From Sipunculus nudus (taxonomy: Eukaryota; Annelida; Sipuncula; Golfingiida; Sipunculidae), in contig CM049318.1 of NCBI GenBank assembly GCA_026874595.1, positions 36,723,956 to 36,787,955 of the forward strand: a DNA stretch of 64,000 nucleotides. The letters are read 5' to 3'. Positions 15,758-57,704 of this stretch are shown one piece after another. A program made the translations under genes and the position numbers. Under the pieces are notes generated by a model. That model was not told the DNA's origin and did not search any database. It saw only the letters and a program-made list of their open reading frames with translations. The first letter of the stretch is position 1, and each line of letters opens with the position of its first letter.

Positions 15758-16154
15758 ATGAGGCTTAGGGGGTTCTTCTCTGCCTGTTTTCTCGCACTTG
15801 CAATCCTCTCATGTGCTTGTAACCATGGTTACCAAAAGAGAACAGCTCAAGTTGATTGGTTTCTCCAGGAACCCGAGATCAGAAGAAACTTTTCCCCAGT
15901 TGATGATGCACCTGAAAATTCTGACGAAGCGGAAAGACTGGTCCGAGAGGAAGGAGACAGTGATGACAGTGATGGTGGCGAGAAAACGAGAGGTGATCCT
16001 GATACTGATGACGATGCTGAGGGAGATTGGGATGATAAAGATGAAGATGCTGAAGCAGAGGGTGAAGATCCAGACGATGATGCTGGCGACGATGATGACA
16101 GGAACGCCCTTGATACTTTAAAAAATCTCCATCAGGGACATGTCCATGCTACGG
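15758..16154 (+). CDS. Gene A exon 1: signal peptide and acidic propiece
   Basis: 132 codons plus one nucleotide. Basic N-terminus MRLRG, hydrophobic core, then Cys residues at the likely cleavage region. The acidic stretch includes DDDAEGDWDDKDEDAEAEGE and DDDAGDDDD. An overlapping open frame at 15798-16121, one base out of register, is a by-product of the GAT/GAC/GAA codon run. Confidence 0.82.
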
Positions 16155-16685
16155 GTTAGTCTATGCCGGATACCTGGAATACCTAATTCCACCTAACAGA
16201 TAATTTCAAGTTCTTAACATTCTTCTGTTACTGTGGATTTTGTATGTTTGTTTACCATCACGTTTTCGAATTTTCCATTTAAAAGTGATTCTCGGGATGT
16301 TTGTTAATTTTGACAGTCTTAATGACTTCAACGGTTCGTCTTCTTTTACTTCAACTGTTAAATTTTGAATGTATTAACGGTATGACTGTGGAAAATTTCT
16401 ATTTTCTTTGAATAATTAAACCATAGTCATGAGAAAAAAAAGCATGAGAGACAGGCAGACAGACAGATATGCAGAGAAGAGATAGACAGAGAGAGATAGA
16501 CAGCCAGAGAGGGTGAGAAAGAAGCATAGGGAGACAGATAGACAGAGAACAGACAGACCGAGGTAGATAAAAAGAAAGACAACCAGAGAGGGGGAGAGAT
16601 CAGAAGGAGACAGCTAGACGGTCAGACAGACCGAGAGGGGGAGAGAACAGAAAGGGAGACCGATAGACAGACATATATAGACAGT

Positions 16686-16755
<70 letters not shown>

Positions 16756-17035
16756 AAAGAGAGACAGCTAGCCAAACAGACAAACAGACAGACAGAGAGG
16801 GGGAGAGAACAGAAAGGGAGACAGATAGACAGATAGATATAGACAGCTAGAAAGACAGACAGACAGACAGAGAATAGACAGAGAGAGAGAGATGGAGAGA
16901 CAGCCAGAGAGGGATGAGAGAACAGAAAGAGAGAGAGCTAGATAGACGGACAAACAGACAGGCAGAGAGGGGGAGATAAGAGAAGGGGAGACAGATAGAC
17001 AGACAGATATAGAAAGCTGGACAGACAGACAGAGG

Positions 17036-17092
<57 letters not shown>

Positions 17093-17466
17093 CAGACAGA
17101 CAGATAGGGAGAGAGAACATAAAGAGAGACATCTAGACAGACAGACGAACAAACAGACAGGGAACAGTCAGACAGATAGACAGACAGAGAGGGGCAGAGA
17201 AAACAGAGAGAGGGAGACAGCTATAGACAGACATATACAGACAGACACATAGACGGAATTCAGGAGACGAAATTGACAATTTGTCATTTATTATTTCAGC
17301 GACACATGATGCCGTGACTCACAGGGTAAAGCACAGAAGTAAGCGTTGGCTAGGCTTGGTCGCCCGTCTGGTTGTCAGGGTACTTCCCAGGGTGATTAAG
17401 CATGCAGCCAGACGTCGCAGGGATTGTCGTCGACGTCGGTTCTGGAGAAGAAGATGCCGACGTTAA
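15758..17466 (+). CDS. Secreted acidic-propiece/Arg-rich peptide precursor, gene A (two exons)
   Basis: Exon 1 is 15758-16154 and exon 2 is 17300-17466, giving 564 nt or 187 residues plus stop. The donor GTTAGT at 16155 and acceptor TTATTTCAG before 17300 give a phase-1 junction coding Ala. The start is the only ATG before a clear signal peptide (residues 1 to about 20, LALAILSCAC). An NHGYQKR motif and a strongly Asp/Glu-rich propiece (roughly residues 47-120) follow. Exon 2 encodes RSKR, a furin-type site, then a 39-residue C-terminal peptide: WLGLVARLVVRVLPRVIKHA, an Arg-rich tail with AARRRR, and two Cys. It has 16 Arg, 1 Lys and 1 Asp, so the net charge is about +16. I infer a secreted antimicrobial-type peptide released by proprotein convertase. 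A shell-matrix or other acidic secreted protein is the main alternative. A paralogue is at 55984-57704. Confidence 0.8.
16155..17299 (+). other. Gene A intron, 1145 bp, with GACA/GAGA microsatellites
   Basis: From about 16440 to 17250 the intron is built of GACA, GATA and GAGA tetranucleotide and dinucleotide runs, including pure (GA)n at about 16686-16751 and 17039-17089. The open frames of Ser/Leu/Val repeats on the minus strand here are translation of this low-complexity DNA. The intron of gene B has the same composition in the same place. Confidence 0.85.
17300..17466 (+). CDS. Gene A exon 2: cleavage site and cationic peptide
   Basis: 55 codons including TAA. A short linker (ATHDAVTHRVKH) is followed by RSKR, then WLG and an amphipathic segment with one Pro. 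The tail places Cys in RRDCRRRR and RRRC, which could pair as a single disulfide or form dimers. Position and phase match gene B exon 2 exactly. Confidence 0.85.
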
Positions 17467-17746
17467 ATAACCATTCATTCTGCCAAGCGGATCCAAACTT
17501 ATGACTTTTAGTTACATATAGGTCACGTCATCCTAACAAGTATTCTATATAAACATCTGACATTTTCTGTTATTGCTAGAGTATGAACAATAATTAAAAG
17601 GCGAATGTCGCACGATATGTTAAATAGAAATACTGCGTGAGAGTTTCGGACCAGCATATTTGTTTGTAAAATTTCAATTGCTCTGCTAAGACAACTCAAC
17701 ATCCATCATGTTGAATTAACACCATAAAACTTTTACAGGCATTTAA

Positions 17747-18059
17747 GGCCAAAAAGGTTGGGTTCTCAGAAACTTTTTTTTTACCTTTGATGACGTATGT
17801 TTTGATAATAATATCAAATGATCAGTGAAACGCATGATAATAATAGCTTTGTTAATAACGCATGATAGATAATTGTTTTGTTAGCACTACATAACAATGG
17901 AATTCTGATCAAAATTGTATTATTTTATCTTCCTTAAAGACATGTCCGAGCGGCTAGAGCTCAGAATTGGTAAGTTTTTATTGAAAATAAAAATAAAATT
18001 TTTTGATGCGGTGGGTTAAAATTGACGCGCGGTGAATGAGAACCATAGTTTTTTTGGCC
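17747..18059. mobile_element. TTAA MITE with 24-bp inverted ends (GGCCAAAAA...), copy 1
   Basis: TTAA at 17743-17746 and 18060-18063. The left end GGCCAAAAAGGTTGGGTTCT and the right end ATAGTTTTTTTGGCC are inverted copies, with GGTTCTCA facing TGAGAACC inside. It is 313 bp with no transposase. A second copy at about 35127-35462 shares the interior phrase CCGGCTAGAGCTCA (here CGGCTAGAGCTCAG). Likely piggyBac-type non-autonomous. Confidence 0.78.
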
Positions 18060-18294
18060 TTAACCGAATAAGAATATGGCTTTTTTGCTCGGCCAGATGT
18101 CGTGACGTCCGTCCGTCGTCGGTATGTTAGCAATGTTTTACAGAATGACTTTACAGTTTCTCAAGAAATTTTTTACACCTATATGTTAGACTAAGTGGAA
18201 TATATTAACACAGCTTGCTGGCTTTTCCTTTTTCAAAGGCGATGGAAGGGAATAATTATAAAAAAATAATTAAATTCAAGGCATGCGACACTTA

Positions 18295-18306
18295 CCGCTC
18301 TCGTTG
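18295..18306 (-). repeat. Inverted fragment of the satellite monomer
   Basis: CCGCTCTCGTTG is the reverse complement of the core CAACGAGAGCGG of the satellite that starts about 33 bp downstream. Confidence 0.6.
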
Positions 18307-18338
18307 AACTATTTCTTTGCCCTGTGCTAGAAATTTTG

Positions 18339-21300
18339 AAATCAGACCAACGAGAGCGGGTATCTCGGTGTAATCAGACCAACGAGAGCGGGTGTCTCGG
18401 TGTAATCAGACCAACGAGAGGGGATGTCTCGGTGTAATCAGACCAACGAGAGCGGGTATCTCGGTGTAATCAGACCAACGAGAGCGGGTGTCTCGGTGTA
18501 ATCAGACCAACGAGAGGGGATGTCTCGGTGTAATCAGACCAACGAATACGGGTGTCTCGGTGTAATCAAACCAACGAGAGGGGATATCTCGGTGTAATCA
18601 GACAAACGAGGGGGGGGGGGGGAGGGGGTGTCGCGGTGTAATCAGACCATTGAGAGCGGGTGTCTCGTTGTAATCAGACCAAAGATAGCGGGTGTCCTAT
18701 TGTAATCAGACCAACGAGAGCAGGTGTCTCAGTGTAATCAGCCCAACGAGAGCGGGTGTCTCGGTGTAATCAGACCAACGAGAGCGGATGTCCTTGTATA
18801 ACCAGACCAACGAGAGCGGGTGCTTCGGTGTGATCAGACCAACGAGAGTGGGAGTCTCAGTGTAATCAGACCAACGAGAGCGGGTGTCTTGGTGTAATCA
18901 GCCCTACGAGAGCGGATATGTCGGTGTAATCAGGCCATAAGAACGGGTGTCTCGGTGTAATGAGACCAACGAGAACGGATGTCTTGGTGTTATTAGACCA
19001 ACGAGAGCGGTAGTTCTGGTATAATCAGATCAACGGGAGGGGATGTCTCGGTGTAATCAGACAAACGAGGGGGGGGGGGGGGTGTCTCGTTGTAATCAGA
19101 CCAACGAGAGCGGGTGTCTCGGTGTAATCAGGCCAACGAGAGCGGAAGTCCTGGTTTAATCAGCCCTACGAGAGGTTATGTCTCGGTGTAATCAGACCGA
19201 CGACCGACGAGAGCGGGTGTCTCGGTGTAATCAGACCAACGAGAGCGGATGTTCTTGTATAACCAGACCAACGATAGCCGGTGTTTTGGTGTAATCAGAC
19301 CAACGAGAGCAGGTGTCTCAGTGTAATCAGACCAACGAGAGCGGATGTCTTGTATAACCAGACCAACGAGAGCCGGTGTTTTGGTGTAATCAGACCAACG
19401 AGAGCAGGTGTCTCAGTGTAATCAGACCAACTAAAGCAGGTGTCTTGGTGTAATCAGGCCAACGAGAGCGGTTGTGTCGGTGTAATCAGACCAACTAAAG
19501 CGGGTGTCTTGGTGTAATCAGGCCAACGAGAGCGGGTGTGTCGGTGTAATCAGGCCAACGAGAACGGGTGTCTCGGTGTAATCAGACTAACGAGAGCGGG
19601 CGTCTCGGTGAAATCAGACCAACGAGAGCGGTTGTCTCGGTGTAACCAGACCAACGAGAGCGGGTGTCTCGGTGTAATCAGACCAACGAGAGCGGGTGTC
19701 TTGGTGTAATCAGCCCAACGAGAGCGGATGTGTCGGTGTAATCAGGCCACAAGAACGGGTGTCTCGGTGTGATGAGACCAACGAGAACGGGTGTCTTGGT
19801 GTAATTAGACCAACGAGAGCGGTAGTCCTGGTGTAATCAGATCAACGGGAGGGGGTGTCTCGGTGTAATCAGATCAACGGGAGGGGGTGTCTAGGTGTAA
19901 TCAGACCAACGAAAGCAGATGTCCTTGTATAACCAGACCAACGAGAGCGGGTGCTTCGGTGTAATCAGACCAACGAGAGCGGGTGTCTCGGTGTAATCAG
20001 ACCAACGAGAGCGGGTGTCTTGGTGTAATCAGCCCTACGAGAGCGGATATGTCGGTGTAATCAGGCCATAAGAACGGGTGTCTCGGTGTAATGAGACCAA
20101 CGAGAACGGATGTCTTGGTGTTATTAGACCAACGAGAGCGGTAGTCCTGGTATAATCAGATCAACGGGAGGGGATGTCTCGGTGTAATCAGACAAACGAG
20201 GGGGGGGGGGGTGTCTCGTTGTAATCAGACCAACGAGAGCGGGTGTCTCGGTGTAATCAGGCCAACGAGAGCGGAAGTCCTGGTTTAATCAGCCCTACGA
20301 GAGGGGATGTCTCGGTGTAATCAGACCGACGACCGACGAGAGCGGGTGTCTCGGTGTAATCAGACCAACGAGAGCGGATGTTCTTGTATAACCAGACCAA
20401 CGATAGCCGGTGTTTTGGTGTAATCAGACCAACGAGAGCAGGTGTCTCAGTGTAATCAGACCAACGAGAGCGGATGTCTTGTATAACCAGACCAACGAGA
20501 GCCGGTGTTTTGGTGTAATCAGACCAACGAGAGCAGGTGTCTCAGTGTAATCAGACCAACTAAAGCAGGTGTCTTGGTGTAATCAGGCCAACGAGAGCGG
20601 TTGTGTCGGTGTAATCAGACCAACTAAAGCGGGTGTCTTGGTGTAATCAGGCCAACGAGAGCGGGTGTGTCGGTGTAATCAGGCCAACGAGAACGGGTGT
20701 CTCGGTGTAATCAGACTAACGAGAACGGGTGTCTCGGTGTAATCAGCTCAACGAGAACGGGTGTCTCGGTGTAATCAGACCAACGAGAGCGGGCGTCTCG
20801 GTGAAATCAGACCAACGAGAGCGGGTGTCTCGGTGTAACCAGACCAACGAGAGCGGGTGTCTCGGTGTAATCAGACCAACGAGAGCGGGTGTCTTGGTGT
20901 AATCAGCCCAACGAGAGCGGATGTGTCGGTGTAATCAGGCCACAAGAACGGGTGTCTCGGTGTAATGAGACCAACGAGAACGGGTGTCTTGGTGTAATTA
21001 GACCAACGAGAGCGGTAGTCCTGGTGTAATCAGATCAACGGGAGGGGGTGTCTCGGTGTAATCAGATCAACGGGAGGGGGTGTCTAGGTGTAATCAGACC
21101 AACGAAAGCAGATGTCCTTGTATAACCAGACCAACGAGAGCGGGTGCTTCGGTGTAATCAGACCAACGAGAGCGGGTGTCTCGGTGTAATCAGACCAACG
21201 AAAGCAGATGTCCTTGTATAACCAGACCAACGAGAGCGGGTGCTTCGGTGTAATCAGACCAACGAGAGTCGGATTCTCAGTGTAATCAGACCAACGAGAG

Positions 21301-23404: not shown

Positions 23405-23410
23405 GCATGC

Positions 23411-25520: not shown

Positions 25521-25560
25521 AACGCTGACATTACCTGAAAACAACGCCAGGACGATCTCA

Positions 25561-28292: not shown

Positions 28293-30215
28293 CTATAACC
28301 AAAGGTCGAGTGTAGGAACCTGGATACAGAATTGTCGTCTCACGTGAGCTTTCACGTGATCAGACAGATGGTTGTCCTCCAGGTCCACGCGGCGCAGTGA
28401 CGTCATACACTGCGCGAGCTTAGTTATCTGATTCATCTGATCACCTAGTTTGTTTCCCGCCAAATGGATCTCTGTGATGGATGGACATTGGTCTAACTTT
28501 CCAAAAAGTTCTAGCATGATATTTGCGTTTTTCAGGCGACAACAATACATAGCCATGATCTGGAGCCGATTGAGACTGACAAGACGTCGCGATAGACGTC
28601 GCACAGTTTGATCAGTGATGTTATTTAAACTGACGTTAAGATATTCTATTGTTACAGGAAGAGCGTCTATGAGCGTCGGCCATTCGGCGCCATGTTCCTC
28701 TGGTCCGACGGCAGCTTCTAGGTCAAGTTTAGTCAACATGAAGGACCCCTCACGAATCTGCTGACACAGCAGATCTAGGCTAGTTACGGAGAGCGTATGG
28801 ATGCCTAACTTTAATTCTGCCATGGAATGCATATTACTGAACGCTGGTAAAACTGCATTCGTTATTCCATCCTGGTGCCCAACACCCTCGACAGTAAGCC
28901 TGGTGACGGCAGAAACGTCTTGGGAGAGATACATTTTGTATAGGTTTTCTGCGTATTTTTCAGTAAATGTCAAGTACACCTCCTGCGGAAGGTTCAACTG
29001 GGTACTCTGATTCTCGGCTAAGAAACTGAGCTGTAACTGAGGTACAATTTTAGCTCTGTCCTCCTCAGAACTGGTGATCAAGGATTCGATTTCTTTGTGT
29101 ATTTCATTCCCACCTAGCCCTGCTATGAATGTTTGGATCATATCCGATTCTTTAACAGCCTTTATTGAGGTGCAGAAGTGAACCAGTAGCTCCCTCTGTT
29201 TTGCTTTTGGGGAATGAACAATATAAAAGGACACAAAGAACTCTTGTATCGATTTATGATGAAACACAACGAATTCCTCCCCATCTCTATCTGTTTCTGT
29301 TCTCAAAATGCCAAGCTTCCATCCGACATCATCAATGGCGTCTTTTACCACCAGGCATGGGAAACTCAACAGGAGCCCGTCTGGTTTTATTCCATAAACA
29401 CTGACCTCTCCGATTTTCATCAGGTGATCATGATATTTGTTTAATATATCTCTGGCTTTGGCCCTGTTTGATGCTCTGACATATTTTAGCTCATAAAGCC
29501 CACACATGTACTCTACTATTTTGCAATAAAACCTCGTGGTGGTGTTTGAGAAAGAGCCATCGTGTTTCCATAGTGTACACATCAGTAGAAGTACGGCGGG
29601 AAAACGACTCAAGTGTTTGAGGTCTTCTGATTGGCTGATGCTTGCTGACAAATTATTACCATTGGTCGGATTATTGTGGAAGAACTTACGGATGTACTCG
29701 TTCACCCCATCCTGGTTGAAGCCTCTTAGCAGCACGTGATTGTCTGGTTGGTAAATACTGACGTCGTCGTAATCAAAGTGAAAAGATGGCGGATGTCGTG
29801 ACGTCACTATTAGTGTGGACTCAGGAAAAGTTTGTCTGTGTACTATGGCGGTGATTTCTTCACTATCTGACTCTATATATTCGTCGTAACCGTCAAAGAC
29901 AAACAAAACTTTGCCCTGACATTTTATAATTTCTCTATACAGTTTTGAAGCTTTCCACCTTTCTACACAGTACTGATTTTGTATGGACTCTTCCAAAGTC
30001 TGCCCTTTCTTTATATACCTTAACAGTATAAGCACCAGGTAATCAAAAGTGGAAAATAGGTTTGCTTCTTTGTCTGACAGTTCAACAGTTTTGCCCAAGA
30101 TATTCCTTCCGACCAAACAACACCATTTCATTGCCAGCTTCTTCACAAGGGTTGACTTTCCTGTGCCCGCGAGCCCCTCCAAAAACACATATTTAACCGG
30201 CAGATCGTCTCCATG
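28293..30215 (-). CDS. NLR terminal exon: NACHT and LRR
   Basis: One long exon of 641 codons including the TAG. The acceptor is TTTTCTTTCAG (complement of 30216-30226). Codon use and motifs are intact, with no internal stop or frameshift, so the gene is probably functional. The LRR region has only about five to six recognisable repeats, short for the family. A further exon downstream is unlikely because of the stop. Confidence 0.92.
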   Translation of the reverse strand, partial: HGDDLPVKYVFLEGLAGTGKSTLVKKLAMKWCCLVGRNILGKTVELSDKEANLFSTFDYLVLILLRYIKKGQTLEESIQNQYCVERWKASKLYREIIKCQGKVLFVFDGYDEYIESDSEEITAIVHRQTFPESTLIVTSRHPPSFHFDYDDVSIYQPDNHVLLRGFNQDGVNEYIRKFFHNNPTNGNNLSASISQSEDLKHLSRFPAVLLLMCTLWKHDGSFSNTTTRFYCKIVEYMCGLYELKYVRASNRAKARDILNKYHDHLMKIGEVSVYGIKPDGLLLSFPCLVVKDAIDDVGWKLGILRTETDRDGEEFVVFHHKSIQEFFVSFYIVHSPKAKQRELLVHFCTSIKAVKESDMIQTFIAGLGGNEIHKEIESLITSSEEDRAKIVPQLQLSFLAENQSTQLNLPQEVYLTFTEKYAENLYKMYLSQDVSAVTRLTVEGVGHQDGITNAVLPAFSNMHSMAELKLGIHTLSVTSLDLLCQQIREGSFMLTKLDLEAAVGPEEHGAEWPTLIDALPVTIEYLNVSLNNITDQTVRRLSRRLVSLNRLQIMAMYCCRLKNANIMLELFGKLDQCPSITEIHLAGNKLGDQMNQITKLAQCMTSLRRVDLEDNHLSDHVKAHVRRQFCIQVPTLDLWL

Positions 30216-32851
30216 CTGAAAGAAAATTTTACACTTATTAACTTATTTGGCCACCGACTGATAGATTCCTGTTCAATTCTGAAAATGCGCTTACACATAC
30301 AAAACTATGCCCTGCCCAAACCAATTCTGAAAGAAGATACAATTTTTTTTCAAATCTGTCCCTTTCTCCGCCTGTCTGTATAAAAATCCATGCATGCAAA
30401 TTGAGGTTCCATTTTTATGTTCCTTTCTGAAGTTAGGAAAAGGCCTTGCGCTTGGATTTGATCGGGTAGTTTATACAATTAGGAATTGCATTGCATCAGG
30501 TTATTCATATATCTTGTTCAGTAACTTCAGAGAGCAGTTAATTTATCCGATGAAATGAGGGAATGAATACAGGAGTTTGATGTATGAACTTTATAGGAAT
30601 TGCAGGAAAGTCACGTTTCAGTAAATATATATACAAAAGTCAAATTCACGTTGAAACATTAGATCAGCAGAAATGGCACTGTCAACTTTCGAGTACTTAC
30701 CTGTAGCATATCAGTATAATTCCCCAGGGTTTCTCGTTCAGCCAAGATGTGGTCACCTTGTCTAACCCAGACGAGATCAGTAAATATTTGGTCTATAGAT
30801 ATGGTAGTTTTGTCTGGTGCCCAGGTCCAAGCCTCGACTTTCCCACACAATCGAAGCAAAGATGTCCTTACAGTTAGCTGAAGCTCTTGTTCGACAGATC
30901 CTGCAATGCATATAGACTTTGTATAAAATTTAGTTTCTGTAAAACTGCTTTACAATATATGTCTGCTCTTTGATTTATATTCCATGGCATGTTTTTATTT
31001 TATTTATTCACTGATCTGTGAATAACCTTGACTTGTGTAAAAGTAAGTTGCAATGTTAAGCTTAAACGAACTCATTTCAAGAAACAAGGAACACAAATTC
31101 CTCTCAGAATATCTGAGAAATACAGGATAATAGAAAATGACTAATTTTGCACATCGTAAGAACACCAGCACAAGTACATAGGTATATGTTATCCAAATCA
31201 GATTATATTGTATTTTAGTGTACTAGTATTTCGGATGTATTAAATGGACACAACGGAAGTGATGTGACGTCCATCAGAAATTAAAATAAAACAGGCCTGT
31301 TGTATGTCCTTGTCTTGTAGCTGGTGGCGATGCCACACCCATATGGTCACTCATACTCGGAACCTCAATGAAAAATACGTATCAAATTTTCAATATTTAT
31401 CTTCTTAATTAAATTTTTTTAATTTAGAAGAAATGATATGATGCCCGTTCATTGAATTAAAGAGTACTTTCTATTTAAGCCCAAGACTTCTGTAAAAGTA
31501 GTATAATTCAATATTTCAATAGATATTCTAATACTAGAAATAATGAAAATATGCCATTCAGTTCCATACCCCCTCACGAAACGATTCTTCGCGCCCCTGC
31601 GCAGATCCAACATGATATCCGAGTCCACTTCCGGCTCTTTCATAAGCTGGTGCAAAACGAAATAACAACGATCGGTGATACCTAAATTTACAAATAATAA
31701 TGTTTCCATGTTTAGCTAAAATGAAAACCTGAGGCAAGATTTGCCCCGTCTTCGTAATAAAAGAAGGCTATATTCGCCAAGTATTCGCCAATGATCATTT
31801 GTTTCTTACCTTGTATTTCGTCAGCTATGTGGCCTTGATTCTGGTTTCGAAGACATTGTAAAAATCCATCGAAGTCAGACCGACTCCTTCTGGCCAAGTG
31901 AAGGAGAAGCCGTCTAGCCTTTCCGTCATTAGATTGTTCAGATTCCTTCAAAGTTTTTACGTTCACAAATAATATTTTTGAAGTATTTCATTCAGTAAAA
32001 GAGTAATACACATCAAGCGAAAAGAGTGCCATGAATTTATATTTAAGGGAAATCTATTTTAGAATAATGGCGTCATCAACGAACTTATTTGTTTACTATA
32101 ATTGTATTCATCAATCTTTGGCGTGAAGAATTTCTATCATCGTTTTAAATAATAGTTTTGTTTAAGAGGCCTAAATGGAAAGCTGTTGATAAATCAAGTC
32201 TTTTTAACATATATGATAAAAATTCGCATGCGTCGCGGCCGCGCCTATCTGCCTCTGTCTTTAAGTCATTTTACATTTATATTCCTCAGTCCAAGTAAAC
32301 TGCTATAAACTTCCATCTGACGGTACAGCCTATCACATAAGAGTGTTTTTGTCGGTGGATACCCTCGTTTAGACCAATTATTTACCATTTCATTTATTTA
32401 TAATATAAGTGCACTTATAGATGCAGTTACTATACAGTCTCAATAATACTGGATACAACGGCTGAACAGTTGAGTTGTTTTGCCGTTTAAATTATCAATA
32501 CTATTACTACATTTACTTTTATTGTTAATATCGATATCGATCTTGTCCCGCTGATTATAATATCTCACCAAAATACTGTTGCACTGCCATAGGCTGATTA
32601 TGTTGTTTGTTATAAGTTCATCCCATAGAACAGAGGTGTCCAAATGCTCAACAAGGTACTTGAACAGTCTAGTTATGGTTTGCTTGTGATCTGGAGGGGC
32701 ACGAAGGACACCTGTAATTAGCAAGCCATCTTTTTTTATGTCAGATGTGTACAGTTAAAACCTCGCTAAACGACCACCGTGCGACCACCGCGCAAATGCG
32801 ACATTTTATGGAGGTCCCGATGGTGGTCAGAATATCGAGGTTTTACTGTAT

Positions 32852-32941
<90 letters not shown>

Positions 32942-40358: not shown

Positions 40359-40517
40359 GTGGCGCCCTTAGAGGCTGCACTGTGTATTGGCTCTCAATCT
40401 AAGGAGAAATTCTTGCAGAAAGAGGCTTTGTTACACATTGAAATTTACACCATCATATGGACAAGATTCTTAAGAGTATGCTGAAAGTGTTTCAGTGTTG
40501 GTTACCATCAGGAAAGT

Positions 40518-42851
40518 GTGCATTTTCATCAGAATTATGAAATAGATTTCCTGCATAGGACCATTTCTGAAGACATGCATCAGTGGTTTCTTTGTTTGCT
40601 TGCCTTGTGCGTAACTCTCTGGATCAATGGCACGATGGTTAACGGGACTTATTCACGAGCAGAGCTTAGTGCCTTTCAATTAACTACAAGCCACATTCAA
40701 TTGTCATTGTTACACATTCTAAGAGACCTGGATATTTGCGTCACTCCAAAGACAAGGAGGGGAACCAAGGCAGGTAGAGGTAAACAAAGGCCCATTGCTA
40801 AGGTCACAGGCATTGGACACAAGAGACTCAAACACAAAGGCAAGTCCAAGGCAAACCACAACACTCATATCATACTTAATTATACCACTCAAAACTGTTG
40901 TGTTAGTAAAGTTCCACTGAAGGCTACACTTTTGAATGCCAGATCTGTGTGTAATAAGAGTATATTACTGAGTGAATATGTAACAGAGAAAGATCTTGAT
41001 GTTTTACTTGTAACAGAGACATGGTTAAAACCAGGAGATACATCAGTTGTGTCAAAGCTCTGCCCAGAAGGCTACAGCTTCCTAGGAAAATCACGTCAAA
41101 CTAGCAAAACTAGAGGAGGTGGTGTAGGCATTGTCTACAAGTCAAACTTGCCCCTCCATCAGCAGCCATCCCCTATAGACAATCTGTTATCCTTTGAGGT
41201 GCTGTCAGTGAATCTGAAGGGCCCAAAACCTTTTAGTCTGTTCCCCATCTACCGACCCCCTCCTTCACAAAGAAATGGACTTACAATATCAAATTTTATG
41301 CATGAAATAGAACTTTTTCTTGCCGCTGTCAGTGCCATCCAGCATCCAGTCTGTGTTCTTGGGGATTTTAATCTGCATATGGATGTAGATGATGACAGGT
41401 TCTCCAAGCAGTTCACTTCAATACTCCGGTCGTTTGGTATGTGCCAGATTGTGCCTTCATCTACACACAAAAGCAACCACATACTGGACCTTGTAATCAT
41501 CAGAGATGATGAAGACAGAGTGAAGGTCGTGGGTGTGCGCGATGATCACATCTCAGACCACTATTCTGTGGAATGTACAATCCATGTCTCAGTGGATAAA
41601 TCACCACAGACCACAGTATGTGCCAGGAAACTCCGGGCCATTAACATAGATCAATTTGCAGCAGATCTGTCTTTAGGTCTGGATATCGGAGTGCTGGATG
41701 GAAATGCGTCACAGTTAGTAGAATTGTACAATTACACTGTAACAAATATTCTGGACAAACATGCCCCAGCCCGACCCATTCGTAAAAAGCAGGTAACCAT
41801 GAAGCCATGGTACTCGGACATTATCCATTGTGCCAGAAGGAAAAGAAGGCAGTTAGAGAGAAAGCTGAGGAAAGATCCTATAGAAATCAATAAGCAGATG
41901 TTCTTGCACCAGAGAGGCTTCGTTGTTAAACTGATAGATGAGGCTAAGAGGTCATACTATAGACAGAAATTTAGTGATGCAACACCCAAAGAGACCTTCA
42001 GACTAGTGAGTGATCTACTTGGGTCTGGAACTGGCAGAAAATTACCCTCTACAGATAGTCCGGAAATACTCAGCAACAGCTTCGTAAACTTCTTCACATC
42101 TAAGGTGTTGAAGATTCGAAATGACTTGGATAGCACAAGTGTAGATATGGATTTGATCAGGACGTCCCACGGAGCACCCCCGCCTGCTATGGTCACTTTT
42201 CATCCAGTATCCTCCGAGGAGCTGCAGAAATTCATCCAGAAAAGTCCAAACAAATCCTGTAGCCTGGATCCTTTGACAACAAATCTTCTGAAAAATCCTA
42301 TTGTGCTACGTTCATTATTGCCATGCCTTACATCTGTAATAAATACCTCAATTACATCATCCGAGGTACCACTTTGCTTGAAAGAAGCTCTTATAACACC
42401 ACTTTTGAAGAAGGATGGTCTTGACCAAGAGGATTTGAAGAACTATCGTCCTGTGGCAAATCTTTCGTTCGTAAGCAAATTACTGGAGAGAGTGGTTGCA
42501 AAGCAGATCCAGGACCACATGACACAGAATCAACTCCACGATCCACTCCAATCTGCCTACAAACCAAGGCACAGTACAGAAACAGCACTGATAAGGATAA
42601 AGAATGATATTGACCATGCACTGGATACAGGCCAGGGAGTAGTACTCCTTCTGCTTAACCTCTCTGCAGCCTTCGATGCGTTAGACCATGGCATCCTAAT
42701 TGAGAGACTAGTTGAGGAAGTGGCATTCAAGGTTCAGCACTGGATTGGTGCAAGTCATAACTTACAACTCGCACTCACCGTGTTAACCTCAGTGGTGTAC
42801 TATCTGATCCAGCCATGCTCACTGTGGGAGTGCCGCAAGGATCAGTATTAG
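40518..42851 (+). pseudogene. LINE endonuclease plus N-terminal RT frame
   Basis: 777 codons open. The true homologous part ends at about 42708; the last ~45 codons are out-of-frame translation after the frameshift. The ATG at 40518 is only the first available, and the basic leader begins about 60 residues later. Confidence 0.8.
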
Positions 42852-43777
42852 GTCCTTTGTTATTTCTTATCTACATCCTTCCTCTGCGTAGAGTTGTCGA
42901 GGCCTTCGGTGTACATAGACACGGATACGCTGATGACACCCAACTTTATGAATTCTTCAAACTCAGTGACCAGCAAGGCCTTGCTCAATCCCTGAGGAAG
43001 ATTGAACAATGTGCAGCTGGTGTTAGAGCGTGGATGATTAAGAACAAACTAAAGTTGAATGATTCCAAAACCGAACTCCTTATCATATCACCCAGGTACC
43101 ATCTTAATAAGATCCTTAGCGCTGAACCTAAGATCTGTATTGGTAGTGCAGAAATAAGACCAGTACACACTGTCAGAAATCTTGGGGCCAATTTCGATGC
43201 CAATATGAGTATGGAGTGTCAGACAAGATCAGTCGTGAAGAACATTTTTTACCATCTTCGCAGAATTGGTAAGATCCGGAACCATCTTGATGACCAGACA
43301 GCTGCTAAGACCATCAACGCACTGATTACATCAAGATTGGACAACAACAACAGCCTGCTAACTGGAACTTCCAATGCTAACATCCATCGCCTCCAACTTG
43401 CACAAAACGCATCAGCCCGATTACTTACAAGGTCCAGGAAGTACGACAGCATCGGACCTGTTCTAAGACAGCTTCACTGGCTGCCTGTTGAAAGGAGAAT
43501 CACATTTAAAGTCCTCACACAAGTGTATAAAGCGCTGAATGATAGCCTGTATCCACTGTATTTGCGCCAACTGTTTGTGGAATATTCTCCCCGCAGGTCT
43601 CTTCGTTCTTCTGATGCTCACAGGATAGTCTGTGTACCTCGCTCCCATAATGTATATGGTGACAGACAATTTTCCAAGTACGCTGCCACCGCATGGAATT
43701 CTTTACCAGACTCTGTTAGAGCGTGTACACATATTGAATCATTTAAGCGTGCTCTCAAGACATACTTATTTTCTTAA
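42815..43777 (+). pseudogene. LINE C-terminal RT frame
   Basis: 320 codons beginning just before the GVPQGS box (motif B). It includes YADDTQLY (motif C) and a C-terminal thumb/tail region ending ALKTYLFS. In-frame homologous sequence extends upstream to about 42712 before the TAA stop. Confidence 0.85.
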
Positions 43778-46082: not shown

Positions 46083-46090
46083 TCTCTCAT

Positions 46091-47390: not shown

Positions 47391-47500
47391 AGAATCTGGA
47401 GAAGCCAAGTGGTTAAGGCACCCGACCGGATATCGGAAGATTGTGTTTTCGATTCCCACTTTCAGTGAACCGACTTCACTGTGTATACCATTTCCACATA
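47391..47500 (+). mobile_element. tRNA-derived SINE head
   Basis: An A-box-like CCAAGTGGTTAAGGC at 47405-47419 and a B-box-like TTTTCGATTCCCAC at about 47446-47459, spaced as in a tRNA, followed by a non-tRNA tail and TA-rich DNA. Stems do not close as a functional tRNA. The A-box resembles Ser/Leu tRNA heads. Confidence 0.55.
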
Positions 47501-49600: not shown

Positions 49601-49634
49601 ATGATCATGTACGACACTGAAACAGAAAGAAGGA

Positions 49635-49752
49635 CAGGAAAGATGGAGCATAAGGTCAAGGAAGGACAGGGAGGAAGGACAGGAAGGACAGGAAGGACAG
49701 GAAGGACAGGACGGAAGGACAGGAAGGACAGGAAGGACAGGACAGGAAGACA
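49635..49752. repeat. (GGAAGGACA)n minisatellite
   Basis: Units GGAAGGACA with variants, about 12 copies. The same motif forms 50830-51345. Confidence 0.9.
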
Positions 49753-49769
49753 GACATATATAGTATTGC

Positions 49770-50640: not shown

Positions 50641-50829
50641 CATAGACATAGTTTATTTCCCTACATTTTACAGGCATATGAGTACTCAGATACATTAACA
50701 GTAAAATTAAACAGTTACATTTAATTTTGATATGGACCTGCGAAACCTTGATGAAAATAAGGTTAAACAAGGTTTACATAATACTCTGTCTATAAACAAA
50801 GAATAACATCTGCACACCGATAAATTTGA

Positions 50830-51345
50830 AACGCTTTCATGTCAAGGGCAGGAAAGATTTGACAGGAATCAAGGATAGGAAGGACATAAATGATAGGAAG
50901 GACAGGAAATACAGGATGGACACGAATGAAGGACGGAAAGAAAGGACAGAAAGAAACGAAAAACTGGAAGGACGGACAGGATAGGAATAAAGGACAGGAA
51001 GAACAGAAAGGAAGGACAGGAAGGAAAAGAAGGACAGGAATGAAAGAACAGAAAGGACATTTAGGACAGGAAAGACAGGAAGGAAGGAAGGACAGGAAGG
51101 AAGGGCAGAAAGGAACAACAGGATAGAGAAGAAGTACAGAAAAAAAAGGATATTAACGACAGCGTGAATATAAAGACAGAATTGACAGGATAGAAGGACA
51201 GGAAAAGATAAGGAAGGAAAGGCAAGTTAGGAATAGAGGACAGATAGGAAGGGCATGAAGGGCATGAAGGACAGGAAGGAAGGAAAAGAAGGACAGGGAG
51301 GGAGGGACAGAAATGACGTTTAGGACAGGAAGGACAGGAAAAATG
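50830..51345. repeat. Long (AGGACAGGAAGG)n minisatellite
   Basis: About 500 bp of degenerate GGACAGGAA/GGAAGGACA units. The Ser/Phe/Leu/Pro-rich minus-strand frames and Gly/Arg/Lys-rich plus-strand frame here are repeat translation. Confidence 0.9.
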
Positions 51346-51701
51346 TTGCAGTAAATGTGCAGTAAATCCTGATGTTTTCATGAATTTTAAAAAATGTTCC
51401 CCCATGAGGGTCCAATGAAATGTGGCTATATTGCTCACACTTAACTTAATTCTCATCGCACAGTTTTCACTGAAGTGGGTGACGGACTAAACGCCTGATA
51501 TAACATATTAAAACAACCTTGACAAGAACCGACATTTAAATCTACATTTTTCTGATTGCTTGCTAAGGGTATTGTGAAAAAGTTAAATATCTACTGCCTT
51601 ATGCTTGGGCGTAATTTCCTGTAGGACCAGCGGAACATGTCTCAACCCCCTCCCCACACACACACACATACACACACTCACCTTCAGCCTGGTGTAAAAG
51701 G

Positions 51702-52631
51702 CAGGCCTCCGATTTTATCGATATATCGCTATATATCGCGAAACGGTGATTCGCATATTGCGCATCGCGATACAGTTTTCAAATATCGATACTTTGTTAA
51801 CTAGCCTAAATCTAATTTATCTTGAGATAAAGACAACGCGTCTGTTATACAAATTTAGACATCTAAATGGGTTGGGATTAATCACCGGCTTGAAGTGAAA
51901 GCCTCTTCCTTGTCTTTCGACGTGTAGTAGGGAATTTTCAAGTTGACCTGATTTACCAGGGAATTTGCATGTCTGCTCGGGGACTTATTGGTAGGCCTAT
52001 ATGAGAAATATTTTGATACGCAAAAAAAGAAAGAAGTGCTGAACACGGTCATAATAATTAATCGTTAATAATTTTAAATATTCTCTGCTGACATCTAATG
52101 ATAACTGAAGGAAGATAAAGTGTCAGTTTCGTTACCTCTGCATGTAATATGGTAAACACAAGTTTACAGGTGGAAAAAGGCGTTCTGCAATTTGTCCCAG
52201 TGGTATTCACCACTGGCGAACTGGGGCTACTTCGATTAATACCATCTGTCCCACTTGGCGACCTTCACCTTTATCCACGGCAATGACGGTATCCAGGGAG
52301 CAAATAATGAAACTAATATGTTACTAGTGTGCATAATATTTTGTAATTACAAATAAAATTGAATAAATGTAACATGAAACATATATTATAAATTAGTTCC
52401 TGTTTGGTTAGTTTGACAACCTAGACATCCGGTCAGTTGGCCGTTTGTTGGGTACTGAAAGGTTGTAAGGCGTTTGCACTACTTGACATCAGGTGATCAT
52501 CATAAATCCCAGAGGTAAATTTACAGAAGACACTTATTTCCTTTACATTTAATACAATGAAAAAATCGCAATACGCTACCAATTATCGCAATATATTGCG
52601 ATAAGAAATTTGTAGGAGATACCCAGCCCTA
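51702..52631. mobile_element. hAT-like MITE (ATATCG-rich), copy 2
   Basis: Flanked by GTAAAAGG (51694-51701) and GTAAAAAG (52632-52639). Left CAGGCCTCCGATTTTATCGA, right GGAGATACCCAGCCCTA. Shares CGATACAGTTTTCAAATAT and ATCGCAATACGCTACC with 11818-12331, with additional interior DNA (930 bp versus 514 bp). Confidence 0.72.
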
Positions 52632-52773
52632 GTAAAAAGAAAACTTAATGGCAAACCGAAATAACAATAACAGAGTTATTAACAATAATAGGCCACAGGT
52701 TTGTAAAGCTCCTCAAATAACAATAAACTACAGTCATTCAAAATTCAATTTAAAAAATGACAAAATGGATATA

Positions 52774-52777
52774 CATG

Positions 52778-52835
<58 letters not shown>
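52774..52835. repeat. (TA)n microsatellite
   Basis: About 55 bp of nearly pure TA. Confidence 0.95.
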
Positions 52836-52837
<2 letters not shown>

Positions 52838-52839
52838 GG

Positions 52840-53409
52840 TTAAGGATTCAGCCGTTTCCACGACACTGGGGTACCCATTCTTTTAACACTAAAATTTAAA
52901 AAAATCATGCAGGTCTCACATTTAAGACTTTTAGGGTATAAAACATTTACTTCATGTTAGTTGCTGGTGTCTGAAACGATACTATTTCTTTTTATTTTAT
53001 ACAACAAATTGCTTCAATATTGCTTAAAATTTGAATGTAAAAAAAATCCACACTGGACACAACCTCGCACGCCCAACACCCTCAGCCGAAGGCACTATCT
53101 CTTGACAAAAAGAAACTTAACAGTCGCACTGGCCTAAAAAAAACTCCGAGAAATGGGTTCTGGATGTGTAACAGATAACAATATTATCATTGAACTACAT
53201 TGAGAAAGTGTGAAGGGATATTAAATACGATATGTATACCCCATGCACTATATAGGATTGTGTGTGTGCGTGGCGGGGACATTCGAAGTCCCCGATTTCT
53301 CTGATCGGAAGAATAAAAAAAAACATTTTTCATTTTTAAAGAACTCTTTATTTGATACGACAAAAGAGCTATGATACGCAAGAAAAAGCTTCGGCTAAGG
53401 TTTTTAATT
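52840..53409. other. Intergenic, no gene recognised
   Basis: AT-rich; nothing supported. Confidence 0.35.
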
Positions 53410-55800
53410 AACGGATGCTGTGGTCAACATATCCCTGACCTTAATAACGTACAAAACACAATCAATAGTCTTTTCAATATACATCTTTTTTTTTCTTTTT
53501 TTTAACACATTTATTCTCATAAAACAAAGAAATACAGCAAATACAAATTACAAGACAATTACAAAGACACAACACACATATACAAAGACGTGTTGTTTAC
53601 ATGTAATTTTACAAACATAACATATTTTCTTTGGTCGGTTCTGTGTTCCGACACAGAAGATATTATAAAGATAAACAACATGAACGCATAAACAAGAACA
53701 GACACCATTTACCCATGGCCATGATATACTTATATAAGGAAATCTCAGTCAGAAATTTTCAAAACATCAACTAATTTACCCCATTTCTTTAAATGATTAT
53801 AAAATATTCCTTTGCTATTTGCAATGTAACTCTTAACCCTTTCTGTATCTCTTAACCTGCTTTTAAACACTGCAAACAAGGAAGAACTATTTTCCGCTCT
53901 TTGCTTGTAGAGGACATATTTATACAGTAACAGAATCTGATTTTGCAGCCTCTTTTTATCATCAACTGGTATGATACCATACAATATTTCCATAAGTGAT
54001 ATGGCTGGGAGATATAATTCATAATCTTGCAACCATGCCTTTATTTTGAAATAAAAATTCCTACTGACCATACATTCAAAAAATAAATGTACAATATTTT
54101 CGTGATCATTGAAACAAAATGAACATCGAGAAGTTTCTTTTATTGTCCATTTAAACAGCTGCTCATTCAGAGGTATATAATTGTGCAATATCTTATACTG
54201 AAATTCTCTAAGGTATGTATCTAAAGTTATTTTATATATAGCTAGATATGCATTTTCCCATCTAATTTCAATATTATTCTCACTGTTTATAATATTCCAC
54301 TTTTCTTGGGCTGTGGGCTTTTCCCATATATTTTCTACAAGTGTATCATATATCATTCGGGATTTCAGACTATTCAGTGTCGCTTGTCCTCCAATAGTTA
54401 AGATTGTTTCCATATTTGAATAGTTTTTTTTCAACCTTATGATTTAGAATACATTTTTTCCACTGTTTCGGAATAACTTGTCTCAGTGACATACAATACA
54501 TGTAATCTATAAATTTAACATCAATATGACCTTGCTTAATGGCATTCCAGGTCTTCCAGGTTCCTTTTTCATCAATCATGTCTTGAATATAATATAAACC
54601 CATGCTATGCAACTGTTTATTATACACTACTTTTGAGTTAATCTTTATATATTTGTTGTTCCACAGGCACTGATATATTACATCATCTGGTTTGTTGGGT
54701 TCCACAGATACATAAGACGACCAGTCTTCAAAACATTTTCTATAAAACTTTGGCAACCTATTTGGCAGTACTGTGACATCAAAATTACTTCCCATGCACG
54801 TTAAACCTCCTATATTCTTTAGTTTATAATTTAATATCTCCTTGATTACCGAACTTTTAGGTTCAATGAGGCGCTTTGCCCACATTACTCTCTGTGTCTA
54901 AATTTTACAGGCAAAATCAGGTATGTTTATTCCTCCATTTTCAATTTTTCCAATGACTGTTTTGTATTTTACCTTGGGCTTTTTAGCTCTCCAGATGAAA
55001 TCACAAAGAAGTCTCTTTATGGATAACACAGTATTTTTGGTGGTATTAAAACATTTGTAACATAATATATTTTTGAAATGAGCAATGAACGTACAACTTC
55101 TGCTCTTCCATATAATGTGAGGTTTCTATACATTTCCATAATGATAATGTAGATTGTAAACTATTTTCAACTCTCTTAAAATTTTCTTTATGTACAATAT
55201 CTTTATTATATGAAAACCAGATTCCAAGTATTTTCATACATGATTTTGTCAAGTCTATCCACCTTAAATTATACACATCATTCACAAATTTCTTCTTTGA
55301 TCTAATATATGCAGCCTCAGATTTTGCTAGATTTAACTTAAGTGATGAAAAATATTCAAAATGTTTGATAACAGGAAGAACCTTGTCCAATGAATCAGTG
55401 TTTTTAACAAATATAGTAGTATCATCTGCAAACATGCACATTTTCACCACAGTATTTCCAATTTGAATTCCATGAATATTTCTATCATTTCTAATCATTA
55501 TTGCCAATATTTCTATAGCCATTATGAACAAATATGGAGCCAGAGGGTCTCCCTCTTCAATATACATCTGATTAAAGCAGGTTATCTCGAGTTGTAATCG
55601 GATTTTTTCCCTATCACAATATCAGCAGGCGCAATTGATCAATAATCAGTAACAATACCACCCGTTCTAACACACAAGCAGAATACAATGTATGCCACAG
55701 TTTTACATCCTGTTGCATAACTTACTAATCTATATCATATAACAACTGATTGTCCAAAAGACCGGATGTACTTTGTCCAGAAAGAGCTCAACTGTTGCTT
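53410..55800 (+). repeat. Repeat R1, copy c, split by an L1-like LINE
   Basis: Left part 53410-53485 (ACGGATGCTGTGGTCAACAT, ACAAAACACAATCAATAGTC) matches 50133-50195. The right part from 55569 (AGGTTATCTCGAGTTGTAAT, ATCACAATATCAGCAGGCG, CCGTTCTAACACACAAGCAG, CAGAAAGAGCTCAACTGTTG) matches R1a and R1b. It ends about 180 bp before the start codon of precursor gene B. Confidence 0.75.
53486..55555 (-). mobile_element. 5'-truncated L1-like LINE with 13-bp TSD
   Basis: TTCAATATACATC lies at 53473-53485 and again at 55556-55568. On the minus strand the element ends in poly(A) (poly-T at 53486-53503) and begins inside the reverse transcriptase (GDPLAPYLFIMAIEILA, MCMFADDTTIF), in frames 55567-55046, 54885-54370 and 54434-53745. 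The C-terminal part carries CSFCFNDHENIVHLFFEC, a C-x2-C-x7-H-x4-C motif typical of L1/Tx1-type elements. Two frameshifts, one at about 54400, separate the frames. Dead on arrival through 5' truncation. Confidence 0.92.
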
Positions 55801-55983
55801 TATGTAAAGGATACGTGGAATGTAGCATTGTGTCGGTCACTATTGGGTGTTTAGTGTAATCGTACTCCCACGTTCATATGTACATGTATATTAAATCCAG
55901 CGTATATTCAGTGATCGAGACAGGGTGACTTGACACGCGCATGCGGACAGCTGACCGTCTGAACATAATCAGGCGCATGCATC
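55801..55983 (+). promoter_or_regulatory. Putative proximal promoter of gene B
   Basis: TATATTAA at 55887-55894 lies about 90 bp before the ATG, a plausible core promoter. No initiator or immune-factor site is clear. Confidence 0.3.
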
Positions 55984-56377
55984 ATGAAGTTTCTGGGCTC
56001 CTTATGCGTCTGTTTGCTGGCAATCGTGGTCCTTTCGTGTACTGGTAACCATGATTACCAAGAACGATCGGCCCAAGATGATGTTCAAGAGTCCAAGGCC
56101 AGAGAAGAAGAGATTTTAACATCTCTTTTTAAAGATTCTGAAAGTTTCGGCGAGGAAGAGAGCGTGGCCCGAGATGAGGAAGCCAGTGACGAGAGAAGAA
56201 TCGAAGAAGAAGAGGCCACGACAGGTGATCTTGATTATGATGATGGTGATGATATTGAAGATGATGATGACGATGATGATGATGATAATGTTGAAGAAGA
56301 AGATGATGATGATGATGATGATGAAAGGGCCGCCCTCGCTACAGAAAACGTGCACCAAAGATATGCCAGCGCCATAG
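55984..56377 (+). CDS. Gene B exon 1: signal peptide and poly-Asp propiece
   Basis: 131 codons plus one nucleotide. The apparent continuation of the open frame to 56439 is intron. The propiece is more extreme than in gene A, with DDGDDIEDDDDDDDDD and EEEDDDDDDDE separated by a short NV. GAT-rich codon runs here are slippage-prone. The Met/Lys-rich plus-strand frame and Ile-rich minus-strand frame are shadows. Confidence 0.83.
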
Positions 56378-57704
56378 GTAGGCTACTGAAAGATATTAAA
56401 TACATGTATATACCATGTAATTTCAGATTCTTATTATAACTCTTTATTTAACTAATTTCATTATATATTTGGCGTCTTACAACTGTTGTTATACTACTTC
56501 TACTTATACTTTTGATATTATTATAATTATTATACTAATAATAATTGTTATTTTTAAATTGAACTCAGGAAAGTCGTTGCCTTCCAATTATCTTGTTTTA
56601 CGGATTTACTGATAACATTTTTTCTCTTAACAATACCAATAATCTCAATAATACATGTACAAATCGTGGATTTCACATGATACCAACACAAGACGATGCA
56701 AAATAAAAGAAAGAGAGACAGTGACTGAGATAGACAGGGCAGGATATATTCTAACGTGCAATTGTAAATGGAAAATGTGCAGCTGTAATTCCGGATTTGT
56801 GAAGCTCTTAATTAAAAAATAATCCCTTGCTACAGATTGCTTCCATGCCCATGAGTAAGTCAAATCTTTTCGATCTCTCATAAAAATGCTATATACGACA
56901 TAAATTTAGTCTGGAATGTGTCTGAAACATTCTGTTAAGTTTCATATATTCAATGAGAAATCATGGTAATATTTACATAATATTAATATCATTAATGAAA
57001 ATTGATAGAGCATCGACATTAGTTTAGTATTTTTTTTATTATAATGAAGGTTGTTTATAACCTTATGTTTTTGCTCTATATGCCTAATTTAATGATGTCG
57101 AGGGATGCTCATTTACAAGTTTGTGCGGTCCTGAATTTCGTACAATACAGAGACAGACAGACAGAGAGAGACCGACAAGCCAGAGATATAATAATAATAG
57201 AGAGATATAGACAGAGACAGAGCTTGGCACAGACAGAGAAAGAGACGGAGAGAGACATAGAGAGATAGAGGGAGACAGAGAGATAGAGAGACAGACAGAC
57301 TGACAGACAGACAGAGAGATAGAAAGACAGAGAGGGACACAGACAGACAGCAAGAGGCAGAGGGACAGAGAGAGTGATAGACAGAGCGACAATGAGAGAC
57401 AGAGAGAGAAAGATAGAGACAGAGAGACACAGAAAGAGAGAGACAGAGACAGACCGACAGAGACTTACGGAGACAGGACAGAGACAGACAGACAGGGTAT
57501 GACACATAATCGGTATATTTTTTTCTGTTACACTTTTCAGCGTCACAAGATAGCGCCGCTGATCTGGAGAATAACCGACCTAAGCGCTGGCTTGGTTTTG
57601 CATTCCGTGTAATTAAGTGGGGGATCACGAGAGCAGCTAGACGTCGCAGGCGCAAGTATCGTCGTCGATTGAACCAACGTCGCCGATTTCGAAACCGAGG
57701 CTGA
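55984..57704 (+). CDS. Secreted acidic-propiece/Arg-rich peptide precursor, gene B (two exons)
   Basis: Exon 1 is 55984-56377 and exon 2 is 57541-57704, giving 558 nt or 185 residues plus stop. The donor GTAGGC and acceptor CACTTTTCAG give the same phase-1 Ala junction as gene A. The signal peptide is residues 1 to about 21 (LLAIVVLSCTG), followed by NHDYQERSAQ, which matches NHGYQKRTAQ of A. The acidic propiece contains runs of up to nine Asp. Exon 2 encodes RPKR, then a 37-residue peptide beginning WLGFAFRVIKWGITRAA, with an Arg-rich tail ending RNRG. It has 14 Arg, 2 Lys and no acidic residue (+16) and no Cys. The terminal Gly could serve for C-terminal amidation. AATAAA is at 57772-57777. 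I infer a secreted cationic host-defence peptide, as for gene A. Confidence 0.82.
56378..57540 (+). other. Gene B intron, 1163 bp, with GACA/GAGA microsatellites
   Basis: From about 57147 to 57495 the DNA is GACA/GAGA/GATA repeats, as in the gene A intron. The 5' half is AT-rich. The length differs by only 18 bp from that of gene A. Confidence 0.85.
57541..57704 (+). CDS. Gene B exon 2: cleavage site and cationic peptide
   Basis: 54 codons including TGA. The linker ASQDSAADLENN precedes RPKR. Shared with gene A in order: R-x-K-R, WLG, a hydrophobic/Arg amphipathic stretch, AARRRR, R-rich tail. Gene B is about four residues shorter in the amphipathic segment. Confidence 0.85.

What the first reader, a model, noticed from the sequence alone, without database searches (positions are those of the whole stretch)
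15758..57704. A two-member family of acidic-propiece/Arg-rich secreted peptide precursors
Genes A (15758-17466) and B (55984-57704) share an entire architecture: signal peptide, NHxYQxR(T/S)AQ, Asp/Glu-rich propiece, one phase-1 intron at an Ala codon, R-x-K-R followed immediately by WLG, an amphipathic segment, AARRRR and an Arg-rich tail. Net charge of the predicted mature peptides is about +16 each. I do not recognise this as a named antimicrobial-peptide family. The sequence shows the architecture; secretion, cleavage and antimicrobial activity are inferred.
Basis: partly seen in the sequence, partly recalled or inferred. Interest (0 to 1): 0.88.

Follow-up and report, generated by a model that had tools for sequence, protein, structure and literature searches.

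The report
Two orphan cationic peptide precursor genes
An invertebrate genome carries two old sister genes for secreted-looking proteins, each with a long acidic shield in front of a short, very arginine-rich tail peptide that resembles a host-defence antibiotic, although no activity or expression has been shown.

Summary
Genes A (15758-16154 + 17300-17466, 187 aa) and B (55984-56377 + 57541-57704, 185 aa) are real paralogues, 41% identical: hydrophobic N-terminus, NHxYQxR(T/S)AQ, D/E-rich piece (-25/-41), phase-1 intron in an aligned Ala codon, R-x-K-R|WLG, Arg-rich C-terminus (+16/+17). Second codon positions are kept better than third ones (dN 0.44, dS 1.14), so the proteins were under selection. 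Precursor B searched against the 1.43-Gb assembly finds its own exons and exon 1 of A, nothing else at E<=10 (10 candidates scored). No relatives in Pfam, PDB or a 5.8-billion protein set, but a control suggests thin coverage of this lineage. Best reading: secreted, furin-activated, Arg-rich host-defence peptides silenced by an acidic propiece. They work like arminin, periculin or centrocin precursors but fit no family tested. Secretion, cleavage and killing are inferred; organism and expression are unknown. A 13-mer, GGATACSTGGAAT, lies 159 and 175 bases before the two ATGs. New orphan family of a known kind; moderate interest.

The parts
15758..16154 (+). Gene A exon 1: hydrophobic N-terminus (putative signal), NHGYQKRTAQ, acidic propiece; ends phase 1
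   Evidence: found by precursor B in the whole-genome search at E 1.2e-11
16155..17299 (+). Gene A intron, 1145 bp, phase 1, rich in GACA/GAGA repeats before the acceptor
   Evidence: GTTAGT...TTTCAG; length
17300..17466 (+). Gene A exon 2: linker, HRSKR convertase-type site, mature peptide, stop
17347..17463 (+). Predicted peptide A, 39 aa, net +16, two Cys
   Evidence: AlphaFold2 model of exon 2 nearly all helix, mean pLDDT 70.2
17593..17598 (+). Possible polyadenylation signal ATTAAA of gene A
55984..56377 (+). Gene B exon 1: hydrophobic N-terminus (putative signal), NHDYQERSAQ, acidic propiece; ends phase 1
56378..57540 (+). Gene B intron, 1163 bp, phase 1, GACA/GAGA repeats before the acceptor
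   Evidence: GTAGGC...TTTCAG; length
57541..57704 (+). Gene B exon 2: linker, NRPKR convertase-type site, mature peptide, stop
57588..57701 (+). Predicted peptide B, 38 aa, net +17, no Cys, ends in Gly (possible amidation donor)
   Evidence: AlphaFold2 model of exon 2 helical, mean pLDDT 72.1
57772..57777 (+). Possible polyadenylation signal AATAAA of gene B (two further candidates follow at 57864 and 57916)
15599..15611 (+). Shared 13-mer GGATACCTGGAAT, 159 bases before the ATG of gene A
55809..55821 (+). Shared 13-mer GGATACGTGGAAT, 175 bases before the ATG of gene B
16168..16180 (+). Third exact copy of the 13-mer, starting at base 14 of the gene A intron

Best explanation
A and B are two old paralogues, on the same strand about 40 kb apart, that encode secreted prepro-peptides. 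Shown by sequence: a hydrophobic N-terminus followed by a conserved NHxYQxR[TS]AQ, an acidic piece, one homologous phase-1 intron, an R-x-K-R site at the same place, and a conserved WLG + Arg-rich C-terminus kept by selection. Inferred: the N-terminus is a cleaved signal peptide; the acidic piece (-25/-41) binds and silences the cationic end (+16/+17) during transit or granule storage; a furin-type convertase cuts after R-[SP]-K-R; the freed 38-39 aa peptide uses its W-L-G segment to enter membranes and its Arg tail to bind anionic surfaces (envelope lipids, LPS, nucleic acid), killing or restraining microbes. A second cut at the internal R-R-R-R could separate a short helix from the Arg tail.
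For: Complete, in-frame, spliceable gene models with all elements in the same order; constraint at the protein level, clearest at the two ends (dN/dS 0.27/0.87 for columns 1-33 and 0.51/2.62 for columns 119-193); W-L-G directly after K-R and the Arg blocks kept; opposite charges of propiece and C-terminus; helical models for both exon-2 products; strong amphipathicity in A. The same logic is described for other invertebrate precursors: short anionic propieces that neutralise centrocins and strongylocins (PMC10608444, passages); a bipartite charge layout in most Hydra antimicrobial peptides (PMC10945409, passages).
Against: No expression, peptide or activity data. No signal-peptide predictor was run. 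Amphipathicity of B is not significant. AlphaFold2 confidence is moderate (pLDDT about 70-72, pTM 0.31 and 0.33), and Arg-rich peptides with two-row alignments may be drawn as helix by default (my judgement). The acidic stretch is conserved mainly in composition (z 2.7; dN/dS 0.47/0.69). The two Cys of A are absent in B. An Arg-rich secreted peptide need not be antimicrobial. Only two copies were found, whereas Hydra and mussel defence-peptide families are larger.
Confidence: 0.6

Rival explanations
1. Secreted acidic/basic protein of a biomineral or extracellular matrix: the Asp-rich part binds calcium and the Arg tail binds matrix; not cut.
For: 41 and 53 D/E in the 148 and 147 residues before W-L-G, of the kind seen in mineral-binding proteins (recalled).
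Against: R-x-K-R followed by WLG and the Arg blocks are kept, while the acidic stretch is conserved mainly in composition (z 2.7); no Pfam match above cut-off.
Confidence: 0.12
2. Cationic storage or nucleic-acid-binding peptide (granule basic protein, extracellular-trap component, or a secreted protamine-like peptide) whose acidic propiece neutralises Arg charge, with no direct killing role.
For: Very high Arg:Lys ratio (16:1 and 15:2). Mammalian eosinophil major basic protein has an acidic propiece before an Arg-rich mature part (recalled; the listing was not read further).
Against: The conserved W-L-G start and the amphipathic stretch in A suggest membrane action.
Confidence: 0.13
3. Regulatory peptide or venom-type cytolytic peptide precursor.
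For: A signal sequence plus dibasic cleavage is common to neuropeptide and venom precursors (recalled); B ends in Gly, a possible amidation donor.
Against: Only one peptide per precursor, no repeated copies, an extreme Arg tail not typical of receptor ligands (recalled); A lacks the C-terminal Gly.
Confidence: 0.1
4. Chance open frames or decayed genes.
For: The acidic part of B contains GAT-repeat runs of microsatellite kind.
Against: Homology with z 18.7 and 8.0 in the two non-acidic parts, second-position conservation over third, intact splice sites and frames in both.
Confidence: 0.05

Closest known systems
Arminins and periculins (Hydra)
   Same: Precursors with biased distribution of negative and positive charge, small paralogous families, taxon-restricted (PMC10945409, passages); [quoted passage not shown] That arminin's N-terminal part is acidic is recalled.
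   Different: No arminin or periculin sequence was fetched, so no alignment was made; periculin's cationic part has eight Cys, here 2 and 0; the conserved R-x-K-R|WLG and long acidic piece are described here, not compared. The mitochondrial fragment reads ATA as Met, which argues against a cnidarian (recalled code).
Centrocins and strongylocins (sea urchins)
   Same: Anionic propiece that neutralises the cationic mature peptide before release (PMC10608444, passages).
   Different: Their propieces are 15-30 residues and the peptides are Cys-linked or Cys-rich with bromo-Trp; here about 125 residues if the signal ends near residue 21, and no conserved Cys in the mature part; the mitochondrial fragment argues against an echinoderm.
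Myticalins / modiocalins (mussels)
   Same: Signal peptide, Arg-containing linear cationic peptide, anionic region, dibasic site, a phase-1 coding intron (PMC5577615, passages).
   Different: In myticalins the Pro/Arg-rich peptide comes first and the anionic extension is C-terminal, with the phase-1 intron just behind the cleavage site; here the order is reversed and the intron lies before the site.
Molluscidins (oyster, abalone)
   Same: Short and very basic, with many dibasic pairs.
Eosinophil major basic protein (mammals)
   Same: Acidic propiece ahead of an Arg-rich basic part (recalled).
   Different: Mature part is a folded C-type lectin domain (recalled); no Pfam domain here.

Membership tests
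Secreted, convertase-processed cationic host-defence peptide (functional kind) | N-terminal signal sequence | tested here: inconclusive
   Hydropathy over 12 residues peaks at 2.62 and 3.19 near the N-terminus; no signal-peptide predictor was available, no secretion data
Secreted, convertase-processed cationic host-defence peptide (functional kind) | Convertase-type site before the cationic part | tested here: met
   R-S-K-R and R-P-K-R at aligned positions; cleavage itself not shown
Secreted, convertase-processed cationic host-defence peptide (functional kind) | Antimicrobial activity of the mature peptide | not testable with these tools
   No assay
Arminins/periculins | Bipartite charge layout, anionic part then cationic C-terminal part | tested here: met
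   -25/-41 versus +16/+17
Arminins/periculins | Sequence homology to the Hydra families | not tested
   No Hydra sequences fetched
Arminins/periculins | Restricted to the genus Hydra | tested here: inconclusive
   Organism not identified; a 51-residue COX1 fragment with ATA at three conserved Met positions argues against a cnidarian (consensus and codes recalled)
Myticalins/modiocalins | Order: signal, cationic peptide, dibasic site, anionic C-terminal extension | tested here: not met
   Anionic piece precedes the cationic one
Myticalins/modiocalins | Phase-1 coding intron within the anionic extension, behind the cleavage site | tested here: not met
   Phase 1 is met, but the intron lies between the acidic block and the cleavage site
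Centrocins/strongylocins | Short (15-30 residue) anionic propiece and Cys-linked mature peptide | tested here: not met
   About 125 residues before the site; Cys count in the mature part 2 and 0
Molluscidins | Precursor without signal peptide and anionic pro-region | tested here: not met
   Both precursors have an anionic piece and a hydrophobic N-terminus
Any Pfam family | Profile match above curated cut-off | tested here: not met
   A: 0 families at E<=0.1; B: Cwf_Cwc_15 at 13.4 bits against a cut-off of 30.4, on the acidic part; with the acidic part masked, one of two members matched UPF0239 at E 0.29

The most novel reading that the evidence does not exclude
A lineage-specific peptide pair whose helix and Arg tail are two separately released effectors (a W-L-G membrane helix and a poly-Arg nucleic-acid or LPS binder, split at the internal R-R-R-R), used to manage a resident bacterial community: the same assembly holds contigs of an uncultured bacterium in several similar copies.
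Probability: 0.06. Interest if true: 0.75.

Novelty: new member of a known kind. Interest (0 to 1): 0.45.

Why it matters
Orphan defence-peptide genes are hard to find by homology because they are short and change quickly. A pair under selection, with the cleavage site, charge layout and intron kept over a large silent divergence, gives a defined peptide to synthesise and test. If active, it would add a family with a long acidic shield and an almost Lys-free Arg tail; if inactive, it shows that this layout alone does not predict a defence role.

Tried and rejected
Protein database searches: alignment A1 (the 7995 candidates sharing most words were scored, none at E<=1). Acidic words probably crowded the candidates, so I replaced the acidic stretch by X (A2; its B row came out one residue short, 184 aa) and searched again: 897 candidates, none at E<=10. 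Control: a neighbouring ORF of this genome found one relative (E<=0.001) among 1520 candidates in the same database, so absence of hits is weak evidence. PDB by sequence: two weak hits of A1, both on the acidic part (E 0.028 and 0.42), none with the mature peptides at E<=10. Literature: strings KRWLG, AARRRR, ARRRRR, RWLGL, NHGYQ, NHDYQ (at least two per paper) gave 8 listed papers, none about such precursors by title; architecture searches (listings only, partly capped) pointed to the families named above. They cover only the held open-access library.

More copies: 200 kb downstream and 60 kb upstream of the window were scanned by tblastn and motifs; no further copy seen. Whole genome: mature A found itself only (1 candidate); exon 2 of A found itself plus four chance matches, E 1.3-9.3 (5 candidates), and missed B, so that query is insensitive; precursor B found B exons 1 and 2 and A exon 1 (3 matches at E<=10 of 10 candidates scored), not A exon 2. 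Flanks, introns and downstream DNA of A and B share nothing convincing by blastn except the 13-mer seen by eye.

Organism: genome-size searches of papers failed. The fragment reads ATA at three positions where COX1 has Met (recalled consensus), which speaks against an echinoderm. I first guessed a chemosymbiotic mussel from the bacteria (note); one search did not support it. An ORF I took for an innexin had no Pfam match.

Full report
What is there. The Ala residues fall in the same column of the alignment, and overall identity is 41%.

Is it more than chance. The N-terminal 47/46 residues align with z 18.7 against 1000 shuffles, exon 2 with z 8.0 and the mature part with z 4.5; no shuffle reached the score in these three. 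The acidic stretch reaches only z 2.7 (7 of 1000), so it is mostly shared composition. Codon positions 1, 2 and 3 are 65, 69 and 49% identical overall and 50, 68 and 32% in the mature part; NG86 gives dN 0.44 and dS 1.14 over 179 codons. The segment ratios are 0.27/0.87 (columns 1-33), 0.47/0.69 (acidic, 34-118) and 0.51/2.62 (119-193); YN00 returned no value and dS of the mature part alone could not be computed. Silent positions of the C-terminal part are near saturation while second positions are kept, which makes chance frames or dead copies unlikely. In 324 kb of the same chromosome, only two stop-free, non-overlapping 50-residue windows hold 24 or more D/E, one in each gene. At 15 or more Arg in 30 residues there are three windows, peptide A and two Glu/Arg simple repeats; peptide B falls under that threshold.

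How many members. Precursor B searched against the whole 1.43-Gb assembly gave 3 matches at E<=10 from 10 scored candidates: its own two exons and exon 1 of A at E 1.2e-11. The search therefore sees exon 1 of a paralogue (44% identity there) and finds no third. The tool scores only its best candidates. Exon 2 of A alone found itself and four chance matches and did not see B, so members related only through exon 2 could be missed. Local scans of 200 kb downstream and 60 kb upstream showed none. The equivalent search with precursor A did not complete.

Anatomy. After a hydrophobic start (12-residue Kyte-Doolittle peaks 2.62 and 3.19) comes NHGYQKRTAQ / NHDYQERSAQ, then the acidic piece; from residue 21 to the cleavage site the net charge is -25 / -41. 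Exon 2 begins with a short linker, then HRSKR|WLG / NRPKR|WLG. The C-termini are 39 and 38 residues with 16 R + 1 K and 15 R + 2 K. Peptide A has two Cys, B none, so a disulfide is not a family trait. B ends in Gly, which could serve amidation (recalled principle). Further R-x-[KR]-R sites lie inside the Arg tail (A after 173 and 179, B after 168 and 169; a last match in A ends at its C-terminus), so a convertase could also split the helix from the tail. The mature form is thus uncertain. The amphipathic moment is strong for A (0.3% of shuffles for its first 20 residues, 4% with the following RRRR) and unremarkable for B (14% and 27%). AlphaFold2 draws both exon-2 products as helix with mean pLDDT 70.2 and 72.1 and pTM 0.31 and 0.33, a modest support.

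Regulation. GGATACSTGGAAT occurs three times exactly in the window, always on the + strand: 159 bases before the ATG of A, 175 bases before the ATG of B, and from base 14 of the intron of A. I noticed it by eye in these places, so the statistics are after the fact: with up to two mismatches there are 8 matches against a mean of 2.55 in 100 shuffles, none of which reached 8. Its 12-base core is absent from 260 kb of flanking chromosome, so it is not a high-copy repeat there. It may be a shared promoter element or a small duplicated piece; its role is not known.

Relatives. No Pfam family above cut-off, no solved structure beyond weak hits on the acidic part and no relative in a set of 5.8 billion predicted proteins. 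The last result is weak: a neighbouring ORF of this genome found only one relative there. The organism is not identified. A nuclear fragment of COX1 reads ATA at three conserved Met positions (consensus recalled), which argues against an echinoderm or a cnidarian and is compatible with a mollusc, annelid or other lineage.

What it most likely does. The layout fits a secreted precursor in which a polyanionic piece keeps a polycationic, partly amphipathic peptide inactive until a convertase cuts after R-x-K-R. Papers describe this logic for centrocins and strongylocins (PMC10608444, passages) and a bipartite charge layout for Hydra peptides (PMC10945409, passages; PMC11767717, passages). Membership fails on order and intron place (myticalins, PMC5577615, passages), precursor type (molluscidins, same passages) or propiece length and Cys (centrocins). 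For arminins and periculins the layout is met but homology was not tested. I therefore treat the pair as an orphan family that works like these, with about 0.6 confidence in the host-defence reading, and keep the matrix, storage and signalling readings open.

Verdict. The finding is real and testable, but the kind is well known and lineage-specific defence peptides are common (for Hydra; in general, recalled).

Noticed in passing
window 28293-30242 (-): Uninterrupted 649-aa frame with a NACHT domain (E 9e-18) and C-terminal leucine-rich-repeat matches, an NLR-type immune receptor lying between genes A and B.
   Followed up: partly
L028-L031 and L032 (contigs C60, C61, C62, C89, C123 of the assembly): The assembly holds bacterial contigs: the COX1 search gave ten bacterial oxidase hits on nine contigs. 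Nine are alike; four of these were read (C60, C61, C62, C89) and show very similar coxB-coxA-coxC-like frames (named by eye), GC 38% in the one measured (L028). No held genome above 58% identity among the 80 kept. C89 (3.3 Mb) carries two copies 2.04 Mb apart, which could be one circular genome read more than once round or two strains. C123 carries a ccoN-like gene, GC 54%.
   Followed up: partly
window 40485-43777 (+) and 53745-55621 (-): Long frames that look like remains of two different LINE-type retrotransposons (motifs recognised by eye).
   Followed up: no
window 47395-47467 (+): Borderline tRNA-like match (30 bits against a threshold of 29) that ARAGORN does not report; perhaps a tRNA-derived repeat.
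   Followed up: no
window 16440-17260 and 57150-57500: Both introns carry long GACA/GAGA simple repeats before the acceptor, although the non-repeat parts compared share nothing convincing.
   Followed up: partly
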